From: Xanthomonas theicola
GTDB lineage: Bacteria > Pseudomonadota > Gammaproteobacteria > Xanthomonadales > Xanthomonadaceae
DNA length: 64,000 nucleotides
Direction of reading: 5' to 3'
Assembly: GCF_014236795.1 (NCBI RefSeq)
Contig: NZ_CP049017.1
Coordinates: 4,406,001 to 4,470,000 of the forward strand
Shown here: piece by piece, positions 19,047-22,926 of the stretch
Numbering within the stretch: position 1 is the stretch's first letter
Layout of the letters: every line of letters begins with the position of its first letter
Position numbers and translations under genes: made by a program
The notes under the pieces: model-generated
The model's database searches: none
Told to the model about the DNA's origin: nothing
What the model saw: the letters and a program-made list of their open reading frames with translations, nothing else

Positions 19047-21172
19047 ACGATGACGCCACAGCGGCCGCGGCCCGCGCCGCCGACAAGCCCCAGCGCCAGC
19101 TGACCGAGCCGTTGAAACTGGCAATCCGTGACGCCTACACCAAGCTGCAGGCCAATACCCCCGGTTTCCGCGTGCGCCGCGCGCAGAGCCAGATGATCGG
19201 CGTGGTGTCGCGCGCGCTGGGTACCTCTGGCGGGGTCGGCGTGGCCGAGGCGCCGACCGGCGTCGGCAAGAGCCTAGGCTATCTCACCGCCGGCGTGCCG
19301 ATCGCGCTGGCCAGCAAGAAGAAGCTGGTGATCAGCACCGGTACCGTGGCGCTGCAATCGCAGCTGGTGGAGCGCGACATCCCCGCCTTCCTCAAGGCCA
19401 CCGGCATCGAGGCGACGGTGGCGCTGGCCAAGGGCCGTACCCGCTACCTGTGCGCGCGCAACGTCGCCGAGCTGCATGGCGAAGCCGCGCAGGACAGCAT
19501 GTTCGAGGACGAGGCGCCGCTGTACGACCGTCCGCTGAGCCCGGCCGAGGCCGAGCAGGCGCGCGCGCTGGCCAAGGCCTATGCCGACAAGGCATGGAAC
19601 GGCGATCTGGATACCGCGCTGGAGCCGATCCCGGCGTCGCTGCGCGCGCGCATCACCACCAATGCCGCCGGCTGTGCCGGGCGCCGCTGCTCGTTCGCGG
19701 TGCAGTGCCCGGTGCTGAAGGCGCGCAGCGACGTGCGCGAGGCGCAAATCGTGGTCACCAACCACGCGCTGTTGCTGTCGGCGCTGGCGCTGGGCGACAG
19801 CGACAACGGCCAGCCGTTGATCGCGCCGCCGGCGGACATGCTGCTGGTGCTCGACGAGGGCCACCACATCGCCGGCATCGCCATCGATCAGGGCGCGGCC
19901 AACCTGGCGCTGGACGACATGGCGCGGCGTACCGGTCGGCTGCAGGCGCTGGTCGGCGCGGCCTATCGGCTGGCCGACAAGGACACGATCGGCAATCAGC
20001 TGCCGAACGAGGCGATCGAACTGGCGACCCAGGTCAGCAAGGGGCTGAAGGCGTTCCGCGCCGAGGTCGAGCGCGCCTGGGTGCCGGAGCCGGGCCAGGA
20101 GGAACCGATGTGGCGCGCGCCCAACGGGCGCCTGCCGGAGGACTGGAAGCCGTTCATCGATGCGCAGGCGCAGGACACCGCCGCGCTGCTCAACTGGGTG
20201 CAAGCCGCGCATCAATTGGTGGCCAAGTCCAAGCAGGAGGATGCGGCCAAGGAGCGCCTGCAGCGCAGCTTGGGTATGGCCCTGGAGATGGTCGAGCAGC
20301 AGTACGCGCTGTGGCTGGGTTGGCGCCGCGAGGACCAGGACGGGCAGGCGCCGATGGCGCGCTGGATCACCGCCTCGCACGATGCCGACTTGGTCTGCCA
20401 TTGCTCGCCGGTGTCGGCCGCGCAGGTGCTGCGCGCGCTGCTGTGGAGCGAAGTGGACTCGGCGGTGCTGACCTCGGCCACGCTGACCGGCGGCGGCGAT
20501 TTCCAGGCGCTGGCGATCGACAATGGCCTGCCGGCGCATGCCGAGATGGTGTCGCTGTCCTCGCCGTTCGACCTGCCCAACCAGGCCGAACTGATCGTGC
20601 CGAAATTCCCGGTGGCGCCGGACGACCGCGAAGGCCATCCGCGCGAGGTCGCGCGCTACCTGGTCAAGGAACTGGACTGGGGCAAGGGTTCGATCGTGCT
20701 GTTCACCTCGCGCTGGAAGATGCTCAAGGTCGCCGACCTGTTGCCGATCGCGCAGCGCAACCGGGTGCTGGTGCAGGGCGAGGGTTCCAAGTCGCAGATG
20801 ATCGGCGAGCACATGCGCCGCATCGGCGCCGGCGAAGGCTCGGTGCTGTTCGGCCTGAATTCCTTCGGCGAAGGCCTGGACCTGCCGGGCGAGGCCTGCA
20901 CCACCGTGGTCATCACCCAGGTGCCGTTCGCGGTACCGACCGATCCGCAGACCGCCACCCTCGGCGAGTGGCTCGAAAGCCGCGGCCTCAACGCCTTCAA
21001 CCTGATCGCGGTTCCGCACGCGCTGCGCACGCTGACCCAGTTCGCCGGGCGCCTGATCCGCAGTTCCAGCGACCACGGCCGGGTCATCATTCTTGATTCG
21101 CGCTTGCTGACCAAGCGCTACGGCAAGCGCATCATCGATGCGCTGCCGCCGTTCAAACGGGTGATCGGCTAG
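19043..21172 (+). CDS. dinG: ATP-dependent DNA helicase DinG
   Basis: A 709-aa superfamily 2, XPD-like 5'-3' helicase that unwinds D-loops, R-loops and forked DNA. Walker A is EAPTGVGKS and the DEAH-type box is LVLDEGHHIAG. Four Fe-S cysteines appear in RTRYLCARN and AAGCAGRRCSFAVQCPVL. Late motifs include LFTSRWKML, FGLNSFGEGLDLPG and LTQFAGRLIRSSSDHG. Its ATG overlaps the stop of the preceding small membrane gene. Length is normal and no damage is visible. Confidence 0.96.
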   Translation: MNDDATAAAARAADKPQRQLTEPLKLAIRDAYTKLQANTPGFRVRRAQSQMIGVVSRALGTSGGVGVAEAPTGVGKSLGYLTAGVPIALASKKKLVISTGTVALQSQLVERDIPAFLKATGIEATVALAKGRTRYLCARNVAELHGEAAQDSMFEDEAPLYDRPLSPAEAEQARALAKAYADKAWNGDLDTALEPIPASLRARITTNAAGCAGRRCSFAVQCPVLKARSDVREAQIVVTNHALLLSALALGDSDNGQPLIAPPADMLLVLDEGHHIAGIAIDQGAANLALDDMARRTGRLQALVGAAYRLADKDTIGNQLPNEAIELATQVSKGLKAFRAEVERAWVPEPGQEEPMWRAPNGRLPEDWKPFIDAQAQDTAALLNWVQAAHQLVAKSKQEDAAKERLQRSLGMALEMVEQQYALWLGWRREDQDGQAPMARWITASHDADLVCHCSPVSAAQVLRALLWSEVDSAVLTSATLTGGGDFQALAIDNGLPAHAEMVSLSSPFDLPNQAELIVPKFPVAPDDREGHPREVARYLVKELDWGKGSIVLFTSRWKMLKVADLLPIAQRNRVLVQGEGSKSQMIGEHMRRIGAGEGSVLFGLNSFGEGLDLPGEACTTVVITQVPFAVPTDPQTATLGEWLESRGLNAFNLIAVPHALRTLTQFAGRLIRSSSDHGRVIILDSRLLTKRYGKRIIDALPPFKRVIG

Positions 21173-21270
21173 CGATCGTGGTTGTTGCTGCGTCGCCGGG
21201 CGCACGCAGCGCGTTCGCGCATGCCACAGTCCATCGCGGCGAAAGTGGAGGCATGCGATGCGGCCTCATG

Positions 21271-21806
21271 TTTTTTGGCTCATCGTGGATTCGTGTGGGT
21301 GCTTTTGCCGGGTTGAACTGGCCCTGGTCCTTGGAAACAAGCGCTTTTCTGCGCTGTGCCGGAGGGCGTCCTGCCCTCAGCACCTGGCCCTGGACGGCCG
21401 CCAGGCACTGAAAAGCGGCTGGCCGCCGACCAGCGCTTGAACACCGCCTCCTTGCTCAAGGCGTCGTTCGGCCAGCTCTGGAGCTATCGCACCGAACGCG
21501 GTGCCCGGGCCTTCTTCGAGCCCTGCAAGCAGCGCCTGCGCCGGCAGCGGCTGGCGCCGTCCCAGCGGTTCGTGAAGAGGATCGGGCGGCACTGGGACGG
21601 CATCGCCGCCTACTGCCATCCCGATCACAAGATCGGCCGCGGCCGGGTAGAAGGCCTGAACAACAAGATCCGGGTCATCCCGCACAGTGCCTATGGCGAC
21701 CGCGATCGGGACGATCTCAGGCTCACGATCATCGCCAGCGTCCTGCCGCCGCTACCCGAAAACGCCCGTTCGCACCCACACCGATCCGCGAAGACCCGAA
21801 AAACTT
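21271..21806 (+). mobile_element. Internally deleted ISL3-family element
   Basis: Imperfect terminal inverted repeats lie near 21271-21312 and 21765-21806; both contain a GTGTGGGTGC core. Between them about 140 codons of an ISL3 transposase C-terminus remain (SFGQLWSYRTERGARAFFEP and RGRVEGLNNKIRVIPHSAYG), about 21400-21755. The N-terminal zinc finger and first catalytic Asp are gone, so it cannot move by itself. Confidence 0.65.
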
Positions 21807-21890
21807 GGGTTCGTCGCCCAACTGAGTGGAGAGGCACACGGCCGACAGGTCAGACTTGCTGTTGTCTAGGCAACCAACTGAAGCTCGGCC

Positions 21891-22495
21891 GTGGCCGACG
21901 CTTTCAGGACCCTGGAGCGCACGCTGGGGCCGCTGGAGCTGGACGGGGTACGCGCGATCGCGATGGACCAGTTCGCGGTGCACAAGGGCCATCGCTACGC
22001 CACCGTCGTGGTGGACGTGGAGCGCAAGCCGGTGCTGTGGGTGGGACGGGGCCGCCCACGGGTCCAGGTCAGAGCCTTCTTCGAACTGCTAGGCCCCCAG
22101 CGCTGTGCCGACATCCAGGCGGTGGCGATGGACATGAACGCCGCCTAGGACATGGAAGTGCGCCAGCACCGCCCAAACGCGCGCGTGGTCTACGACCTGT
22201 TCCATGTGATCGCCAAAGACGGCCGCGAGTACGGCCTGGGCCTGGCGCCGTGCCTGGAGGCAGTGGCGACGCCACGCCCGGGAGAGTGCGATCCCGGCCC
22301 TGATGCACTTCGCCAGGTGCCTGCGGCCCGACTGGCGCGGCATCCTCCGTCGGGTACGCTGGCCGAGGCACACCGGCTTGCTCGAAGGCATCCACAACAA
22401 GATCAAGGTCATCAAGCCCATCGCCTACGGCTAACGCGATGACGCCCACTTCTTCCTCAAGATCCGCGCTGCCTTCCACGCAGTTGGGAGATGAA
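21891..22495 (+). pseudogene. Second, decayed ISL3-family transposase
   Basis: Coding pieces match the middle and end of an ISL3 transposase: AIAMDQFAVHKGHRYATVVV, WVGRGRPRVQVRAFFELLGP and QAVAMDMNAA. A stop at 22146-22148 interrupts it, after which the frame resumes (MEVRQHRPNARVVYDLFHVIAK). It shifts again to GLLEGIHNKIKVIKPIAYG, another stop, and DDAHFFLKIRAAF. It shares only family-level similarity with the first ISL3 copy. Confidence 0.7.
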
Positions 22496-22553
22496 CCAAA
22501 ACTTGGACCATCGCAAACGTCCATGGAGTCACAAAAGGACAGCATTGTGTAGG

Positions 22554-22886
22554 TGGTGGGCCGTGTTGGACTTGAACCAACGACCAAAGGATTATGCTTG
22601 CCACTTCGGCTTTCGCCGCCCGTTTCCGGTTCGTGGTCTGGACTCTGTCTTGCCTTTCGGCCTTCCCGTCGAGTCTCTACACGTTCCTTCCTCGCGGAAG
22701 GCTTCGCTCGGCGTTGGCATAGCGCACTGGAAGCGCCTTAGCGTTCACCGAATTTGAGAAGTTCTACTTCAAGGCAGAGTGAACTTACCTTGAGCAACCC
22801 ATTGGGACGATCCATTCCTGAGCCAACGGCCAGGGGCAGGAACGTCCCGTTAAGTCCTCTGCTCTAACCAACTGAGCTAACGGCCC
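22554..22886 (-). tRNA. tRNA-Ile(CAU), interrupted by a group I intron
   Basis: The 5' exon is 22886-22853 (34 nt, GGGCCGUUAGCUCAG...) and the 3' exon is 22596-22554 (43 nt, ending ACGGCCC-A-CCA with encoded CCA). Joined, they give a 77-nt tRNA with a perfect 7-bp acceptor stem. The anticodon arm GAGGA-CUCAUAA-UCCUU has anticodon CAU, and the T arm is GUUGG/CCAAC. The UUGGUCG variable region and overall similarity fit tRNA-Ile2, whose C34 is changed to lysidine by TilS to read AUA, rather than tRNA-Met, which lies separately at 57013. The two halves are 256 nt apart. Confidence 0.88.
22597..22852 (-). other. Group I self-splicing intron in the anticodon loop of tRNA-Ile(CAU)
   Basis: A 256-nt insertion after U33 of the tRNA; it follows U and ends in G, as group I introns require. 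The core is visible on the minus strand. R segment GUAGAGACUCGACGG is at 22680-22666 and S segment AAGACAGAGUCC at 22651-22640. P7 is GACUC/GAGUC. P3 is CUUCUC with GA-CGG-GAAG. P4 is CGGUG/CGCCG. P6 is CCUUCC/GGAAGG with a GCGA loop, and P8 is GCC-GAAA-GGC. P9 is CCAC/GUGG with P9.1 CCG-GAAA-CGG and P9.2 GGC-GAAA-GCC. P2 is UUCCUG/CAGGAA. It resembles the small tRNA introns of Azoarcus (IC3-like). P1 is not firmly assigned. No homing-endonuclease ORF fits inside. Confidence 0.88.
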
Positions 22887-22896
22887 GCAGCTTCCG

Positions 22897-22926
22897 ATTG
22901 TCGCATAGGCAACCGGCGGCAGTAAA
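22897..22926 (-). promoter_or_regulatory. Candidate promoter of the intron-bearing tRNA
   Basis: Read on the minus strand, TTTACT (22926-22921) and GACAAT (22902-22897) are separated by 18 bp and end ten bases before the mature tRNA 5' end. Both boxes are imperfect matches to the sigma-70 consensus. Confidence 0.35.

What the first reader, a model, noticed from the sequence alone, without database searches (positions are those of the whole stretch)
22597..22852. Group I intron inside the only tRNA-Ile(CAU) gene seen
Seen: two tRNA halves separated by 256 nt. The insert carries R (GUAGAGACUCGACGG) and S (AAGACAGAGUCC) segments, and P2, P3, P4, P6, P7, P8, P9, P9.1 and P9.2 all pair; four loops are GNRA. 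P3 (CUUC-UC / GA-CGG-GAAG) covaries with what I recall of the Azoarcus intron while keeping its CGG bulge. The insert follows U and ends in G. Known: small group I introns occur in proteobacterial tRNA-Ile(CAU) and tRNA-Arg genes. Inference: this is a working ORF-less IC3-like ribozyme. I do not know if it has been described in this lineage.
Basis: partly seen in the sequence, partly recalled or inferred. Interest (0 to 1): 0.9.

Follow-up and report, generated by a model that had tools for sequence, protein, structure and literature searches.

The report
Foreign self-splicing tRNA replaced native gene
In this bacterium (likely a Xanthomonas), the only gene found for the tRNA that would read the rare AUA codon is a likely foreign copy split by a 256-base group I intron, which is predicted to splice itself out; introns of this kind are already known, but here the gene likely took over from a native copy that is now a stub.

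Summary
On the minus strand, tRNA-Ile(CAU) halves (22886-22853, 22596-22554) flank a 256-nt group I intron (22852-22597). Rfam finds it only below its gathering score (32.9 vs 50 bits), but 33 related introns covary strongly: 96.3% of cells paired, 37 of 50 pairs with changes on both sides. The intron precedes the anticodon (U33|C34), unlike the introns after it seen in its own family. Its guide (GGU, intron nt 54-56) lies behind a ~50-nt extra domain and covaries with tRNA position 31 in 61 of 65 introns. Core, exons and a promoter-like motif match Comamonadaceae (clade 100/98), so the gene likely arrived whole by lateral transfer. The native gene, intact in 17 of 19 congeners, is a 20-nt stub here; the other two congeners keep only its 3' half beside another, intron-free Ile(CAU) gene. 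No other Ile(CAU) gene was found here. Group I introns in tRNA-Ile2 of Acidovorax and Burkholderia were reported in 2021 (PMC8450103): a new member of a known kind. Splicing is untested.

The parts
22853..22886 (-). 5' exon of tRNA-Ile(CAU): acceptor, D arm, 5' anticodon stem, C32-U33
   Evidence: 33 of 33 compared bases identical in six close relatives
22597..22852 (-). group I intron, 256 nt, no ORF over 25 codons wholly inside, ends in omega-G
22554..22596 (-). 3' exon of tRNA-Ile(CAU): anticodon C34-A35-U36 to the encoded CCA
22803..22852 (-). extra domain in the P1 loop (intron nt 1-50), with hairpin GGGACG/CGUCCC; variable among relatives
22796..22802 (-). guide AUG-GGUU (intron nt 51-57): GGU (54-56) pairs with exon ACU (P1, U33.G wobble); AUG can pair with the anticodon CAU of the 3' exon (P10)
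   Evidence: covariation with tRNA position 31, 61 of 65 introns; positions
22756..22761 (-). P3 5' strand CUUCUC (3' strand at 22662-22667)
   Evidence: 6 of 6 pairs with changes on both sides
22666..22680 (-). R segment GUAGAGACUCGACGG with the P7 5' strand
22652..22662 (-). P8 with GAAA loop
22640..22651 (-). S segment AAGACAGAGUCC with the P7 3' strand
22608..22629 (-). P9.1 and P9.2, both with GAAA loops
22896..22907 (-). TATGCGACAATC, -10-like motif; the same or similar upstream of relatives' genes, so it probably came with the gene
   Evidence: alignment to Paracidovorax runs 22545-22916; the strict sigma-70 scan found no promoter
21271..22499 (+). ISL3-type transposase fragments downstream of the tRNA; parts at 87-99% identity elsewhere in the genome
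   Evidence: PF01610; copies in L030

Best explanation
The insert is a group I intron in the anticodon loop (U33|C34) of the only tRNA-Ile(CAU) gene found in this genome, and it is predicted to remove itself from the precursor so that the cell can make this tRNA. Predicted mechanism, by analogy with studied group I introns: the guide GGU (intron nt 54-56) pairs with exon ACU; a guanosine held in P7 attacks after U33; the freed U33 then attacks after the terminal G, joining U33 to C34 and restoring the seven-base anticodon loop. After lysidine modification of C34 by TilS (recalled; tilS not looked for here) the tRNA would read AUA. Likely history, inferred: a Comamonadaceae-type gene (exons, intron and core promoter) came in by lateral transfer, and the native intron-free gene beside glgB was reduced to a 20-nt stub by a rearrangement, so the host would now depend on the ribozyme. 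Shown: anatomy, covariation, the foreign type of exons and core, the stub, the lack of another copy found. Inferred: splicing, expression, dependence, order of events.
For: RF00028 match at E 1.3e-6. Covariation on 33 introns: 96.3% of 1639 cells paired, 37 of 50 pairs with changes on both sides, all slid versions far lower. P1: A31 with U 21 times, G31 with C 40 times, 4 exceptions among 65. Joined exons form a standard tRNA. No other Ile(CAU) gene found. Intact native gene in 17 of 19 congeners; in this genome glgB is followed by the first 20 nt of that gene and then unrelated DNA. Core 186-194 identities over 198-204 columns with six relatives; native congener exons match only 29/33 and 28/39. 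Tree: clade of 7 with Comamonadaceae, a Burkholderiaceae bacterium and Halotalea, 100/98; next to Paracidovorax and a viral-collection contig, 96/90.
Against: No splicing or expression data. The Rfam score is under the gathering cut-off, and 4 of 5 close relatives tested had no RF00028 match at E 0.001. The strict sigma-70 scan found no promoter. P1 is short, and its covariation has 4 exceptions. The tRNA inventory misses Ile(GAU) and Ala(UGC), so an unseen copy in a masked or missed stretch is not fully excluded.
Confidence: 0.88

Rival explanations
1. The gene is a fossil: the intron no longer splices and AUA codons are read by some other tRNA.
For: It lies beside transposase fragments in a rearranged region; three window ORFs hold AUA only twice in 1868 codons (in one of them the first 140 codons may not be coding); no expression data.
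Against: Intron helices, guide, omega-G and exons are intact and agree with relatives; no other Ile(CAU) or Ile(UAU) gene was found; the -10-like motif is kept.
Confidence: 0.06
2. Only the intron moved in (homing or reverse splicing) and landed in the native tRNA gene.
For: Group I introns can move by themselves (recalled); the site is a conserved anticodon loop.
Against: The exons are of the Comamonadaceae type, not of the congener type, on both sides; similarity to Paracidovorax spans 22545-22916, past both ends of the gene; the native gene is a separate stub.
Confidence: 0.03
3. It descends from the CAU|AAU tRNA-Ile(CAU) intron found in other genera of its own family.
For: 14 of 149 genomes sampled in the family have an RF00028 match (a lower bound: with its stricter filters this search missed both matches of the own genome); 13 of these 14 loci show an intron in tRNA-Ile(CAU), the 14th runs off its contig.
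Against: Those follow the anticodon, with a GGUG guide near the 5' end; in the tree the 5 of them included form their own group (100/100) apart from the window.
Confidence: 0.01

Closest known systems
Group I introns in tRNA-Ile2 of Acidovorax and Burkholderia, noted in the tRNAscan-SE 2.0 paper (PMC8450103, passages read)
   Same: Same tRNA; our nearest relatives by tree are from Paracidovorax, a viral-collection contig, Halotalea, Ottowia, a Burkholderiaceae bacterium and Pseudacidovorax.
   Different: Another lineage (likely Xanthomonas), and the native gene is a stub. The passage gives no sequences or insertion sites, so identity with those introns was not checked.
Cyanobacterial tRNA-fMet introns (Biniszkiewicz 1994, seen only as a citation in PMC8450103; tRNA-fMet introns also mentioned in passages of PMC4033280 and PMC1995217)
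   Same: fMet-like introns of cyanobacteria in our scan, e.g. L057 and L117, have the same site before CAU and the same internal guide layout (fMet by my reading of the halves).
   Different: Different tRNA; guide GGC instead of GGU.
Azoarcus tRNA-Ile(CAU) intron (recalled; Tanner and Cech 1996 seen only as a citation)
   Same: Same tRNA; small; R and S segments much alike (recalled).
   Different: The Azoarcus intron follows the anticodon (recalled; such a site is seen directly in 13 loci of this family), with the guide next to the 5' end.

Membership tests
Group I intron | P3-P8 core with R and S segments and the P7 pseudoknot | tested here: met
   All 5 P7 pairs form in 33 of 33 rows, 2 of them with changes on both sides; P3 6 of 6
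Group I intron | Guide sequence pairing with the 5' exon, U.G at the splice site | tested here: met
   GGU with ACU; covariation 61 of 65
Group I intron | Intron ends in G | tested here: met
   Position 22597; the scan pattern required this G, so its conservation in those relatives proves nothing
Group I intron | Rfam RF00028 gathering score (50 bits) | tested here: not met
   32.9 bits, E 1.3e-6; a database threshold, not a structural feature
Group I intron | Guanosine-dependent self-splicing | not testable with these tools
   needs RNA
Azoarcus-type tRNA-Ile(CAU) intron | Insertion after the anticodon (CAU|AAU) | tested here: not met
   Insertion is U33|C34; Azoarcus site recalled
Azoarcus-type tRNA-Ile(CAU) intron | Groups with CAU|AAU introns in a core tree | tested here: not met
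   5 such rows in the tree, none from Azoarcus itself
Comamonadaceae-type tRNA-Ile(CAU) intron, U33|C34 | Same site, same exon type, same core clade | tested here: met
Subgroup IC3 | Subgroup-specific peripheral pairings | not tested
   no subgroup models at hand

The most novel reading that the evidence does not exclude
Mobile DNA has taken over two tRNAs of this genome with intron-bearing stand-ins. Besides the Ile(CAU) case, the only tRNA-Leu(UAA) gene found carries a group I intron (after U34) and lies just inside one end of a ~58-kb island that split the native tRNA-Leu(UAA) within its anticodon loop (shared 7-bp core CTTAAAA, integrase gene at the far end). An intron in the anticodon loop would remove the integrase target from the stand-in while still giving a normal tRNA, so the host would depend on a foreign ribozyme and the stand-in would be shielded from further integration. 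Two congeners also swapped native tRNA-Ile(CAU) for another gene, but without an intron, so takeover would be common and the shield optional.
Probability: 0.2. Interest if true: 0.75.

Novelty: new member of a known kind. Interest (0 to 1): 0.43.

Why it matters
The intron itself is a known kind. What adds interest is the setting: a tRNA generally held to be essential (recalled) seems to have been replaced by a foreign gene that needs a ribozyme to work, in a genus where 17 of 19 other sampled genomes keep the plain native gene. It also shows a gap in annotation: ARAGORN and Rfam at its cut-off both miss gene and intron here, so the genome looks as if it lacked tRNA-Ile2. With the island-borne tRNA-Leu(UAA) it gives a concrete case to ask why intron-bearing tRNAs spread: as passengers of lateral transfer, or because the intron hides the anticodon-loop target of integrases.

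Tried and rejected
First idea for the guide: pairing of the 5' exon with GUUCC near the intron's 5' end. Rejected, since it leaves a C.U mismatch and does not recur in the relatives printed; the internal GGGUUGC motif covaries instead. A consensus fold first paired that motif with the S segment; dropped because S is the P7 strand, which that tool cannot draw as a pseudoknot; P7 was then tested by name. First pattern for intact Ile(CAU) genes was misspaced and is not used; replace it. Two core trees left the window out through a bad regular expression and are not used for the tree argument; one search replaces them with 48 rows (4 Ile33, 2 Ile36 and 3 Leu34 rows of those asked for dropped out). 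The alignment holds 33 of the 35 references (L110 and L117, near copies of others, left out). Pfam domains next to the relatives' genes gave no integrase (10 proteins from seven loci), so that the Ile gene itself rides on an integrative element is not shown. Contexts of three other genomes with the same type of Leu intron showed no integrase either (10 proteins), and two congeners swapped tRNA-Ile(CAU) without an intron; both speak against the shielding idea as a general rule.

Full report
WHAT IS THERE. On the minus strand, 22886-22853 and 22596-22554 are the two halves of a tRNA-Ile(CAU) gene with encoded CCA; between them lie 256 nt (22852-22597) that follow U33 and end in G. ARAGORN and Rfam at gathering level see neither gene nor intron. 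At a laxer threshold the only strong match is the group I intron model RF00028, 32.9 bits (gathering score 50), E 1.3e-6 for 601 bases; over the whole genome it is one of two matches, E 2.4e-6. The joined exons give a 77-nt tRNA with anticodon CAU. No ORF over 25 codons lies wholly inside the intron.

IS THE STRUCTURE REAL. 33 of 35 introns listed, chosen for the same site, guide motif and a core of 175-215 nt, were aligned from the guide to the 3' exon. For the structure P2 to P9.2 with P7 as a pseudoknot, 96.3% of 1639 cells pair, 37 of 50 pairs have changes on both sides, and the covariation score is 0.550 against 0.190 +/- 0.009 in 500 shuffles, none reaching it; partners slid by 1 to 3 columns give 0.065 to 0.092. 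The structure came from a consensus of the same rows, so part of the excess over the slid versions is built in, and related rows inflate such scores; the number of pairs with changes on both sides (37 against 25.7 +/- 1.9 shuffled) is the sturdier measure. P3 and P9.2 vary in every pair and never break; the fifth P7 pair has four types.

THE GUIDE. A conserved GGG(U/C)UG motif lies upstream of P2, in the window at intron nt 53-58. Of 113 different introns at this site (window included), 65 have the motif; in 61 its fourth base pairs with tRNA position 31 (A31 with U 21, G31 with C 40), and 4 do not (L202, L061, L096, L144). The other 48 lack the motif and were not tested; at least 18 have a GGGUC motif within 30 nt of the 5' end instead. 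Related sequences are not independent, so the Fisher value is not a probability of chance; but genes that are not fMet-like by my reading and have G31 (L058, L062, L101, L126, L135, L146, L166) also carry C. P1 is thus exon ACU with GGU (nt 54-56), U33.G at the splice site. The preceding AUG can pair with anticodon CAU (P10); in several relatives this triplet deviates. Intron nt 1-50 form an extra hairpin domain in the P1 loop, little conserved among relatives.

KIN. Six close relatives match the window core at 186/200 to 194/204 and its 5' exon at 33/33: Paracidovorax cattleyae (L127), a viral-collection contig (L183), Halotalea alkalilenta (L082), a Burkholderiaceae bacterium (L142), Ottowia (L090) and Pseudacidovorax intermedius (L134). 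In a tree of 48 cores these and the window form one set (100/98), the window next to Paracidovorax and L183 (96/90). Similarity to Paracidovorax spans 22545-22916, past both ends of the gene, and the -10-like TATGCGACAATC upstream is the same or similar in the relatives printed, least so in L134; a strict sigma-70 scan found no promoter. In the family of the window's genome, 14 of 149 sampled genomes have an RF00028 match, a lower bound since this search missed the own genome; in 13 of the 14 loci the sequence shows an intron after the anticodon of tRNA-Ile(CAU), the 14th runs off its contig. Five of these in the tree form a separate group. In 369 genomes of the class the site-specific pattern hit 6, of which 3, the own genome included, have a group I 3' end before the anticodon.

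THE NATIVE GENE. All 19 congeners hold the 3' half of a native tRNA-Ile(CAU) of another type. In 17 of the 19 it runs on unbroken into the matching 5' half; in the other two (G155, G157) the native 5' half is not attached, and each has another complete, intron-free Ile(CAU) gene of a different sequence (L273/L284; L275, L285). In 14 of 19 the gene follows glgB (long upstream match; family). In this genome the stretch after glgB ends with GGGCCTATAGCTCAACGGTT, the first 20 nt of the native gene, and goes on into unrelated DNA. So the native gene is a stub about 33 kb from the foreign one. Around the window gene, synteny with all 19 congeners stops at 21169-21178, at the end of dinG and just before ISL3-type transposase fragments; 1.5 kb beyond was compared for the 19 and up to 15 kb for three.

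IS IT THE ONLY COPY. The tRNA search of the genome gave 47 matches; 44 of the 46 typed are tRNAs with an anticodon, 2 gave none, and the remaining one is the window's tRNA-Gln. CAU genes: fMet-like, Met, and the split Ile; the pattern also hit one place that is no tRNA. No Ile(UAU). The list also lacks Ile(GAU) and Ala(UGC), usually in rRNA operons (recalled), so the held sequence or the search has gaps.

HOW IT MOST LIKELY WORKS. Guanosine-dependent two-step self-splicing as in studied group I introns (established knowledge, recalled), giving the normal anticodon loop; then modification by TilS (recalled; not looked for). None of this is shown here.

A SECOND CASE IN THE SAME GENOME. The only tRNA-Leu(UAA) gene found has a 232-nt group I intron after U34. 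It starts 198 bp after a detached 5' half of the native tRNA-Leu(UAA); the matching 3' half lies 58 kb away, 77 bp from an integrase ORF. This is the basis of the novel case. Against its general form: no integrase in the contexts looked at around three other Leu introns of this type or around the Ile relatives, and two congeners whose stand-in Ile(CAU) gene has no intron.

WHAT IS KNOWN. [quoted passage not shown] Searches for group I introns with tRNA-Ile and Azoarcus, with tRNA genes and gammaproteobacteria, with tRNA-fMet and tRNA-Leu, with Xanthomonas and tRNA, with islands, integrases and anticodon loops, with bacterial tRNA-Arg, with tRNA-Ile2 and Acidovorax and on tRNA replacement listed no paper that I took, by title and abstract start, for a report of this case. 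Several lists were cut (for example 15 of 20, 10 of 371), and most subscription papers are not held.

ORGANISM. The first 20 kb of the genome's second contig match 307 plasmid records, 305 of Xanthomonas; the genus is inferred from that, the species is unknown.

VERDICT. New member of a known kind, with an unusual setting: likely lateral transfer of a whole intron-bearing gene and loss of the native one.

Noticed in passing
G000:C1:1064639-1065194 (L001, L295): A tRNA-Leu(UAA) gene with a 232-nt group I intron after U34 starts 198 bp after a detached 5' half of the native tRNA-Leu(UAA). No other complete Leu(UAA) gene was found.
   Followed up: partly
G000:C1:1123164 (L287, L298): The matching 3' half of the native tRNA-Leu(UAA), sharing the 7-bp CTTAAAA with the 5' half 58 kb away and 77 bp from a tyrosine integrase ORF (PF00589): an island inserted in the anticodon loop. 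14 of 20 genomes of the genus match a pattern for the intact native gene; this one and 5 congeners do not.
   Followed up: partly
L273, L284 (G155); L275, L285 (G157): Two congeners keep only the 3' half of the native tRNA-Ile(CAU), from the anticodon loop on, and have another complete intron-free Ile(CAU) gene: looks like repeated takeover of this tRNA by mobile DNA.
   Followed up: partly
L393:859-1051 (plasmid pCTX-M3): An unannotated group I intron-like stretch (RF00028, 36.8 bits, below cut-off) with no tRNA found in the 2 kb; blastn with the window gene matched 1253 plasmid records, 1251 of them at 60-80% identity, Escherichia and Klebsiella first.
   Followed up: partly
L350-L377 (class survey): tRNA-Leu(UAA) genes split after U34: pattern hits in 28 of 369 genomes of the class, 25 with a 5' half upstream (one of these, L350, unclear): introns in proteobacterial tRNA-Leu(UAA) are not rare.
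   Followed up: partly
L051-L167: Introns before the CAU of fMet- and Ile-like genes occur in many phyla (record titles name Planctomycetes, Bacteroidota, Chloroflexi, Nitrospirae, Omnitrophota and others); several are about 600-700 nt long; whether they hold ORFs was not checked.
   Followed up: no
L168-L260 (viral contigs): 18 different U33|C34 introns with a 5' tRNA half were parsed from viral contigs; 9 of them are of a type with a GGGUC motif within 30 nt of the 5' end.
   Followed up: no
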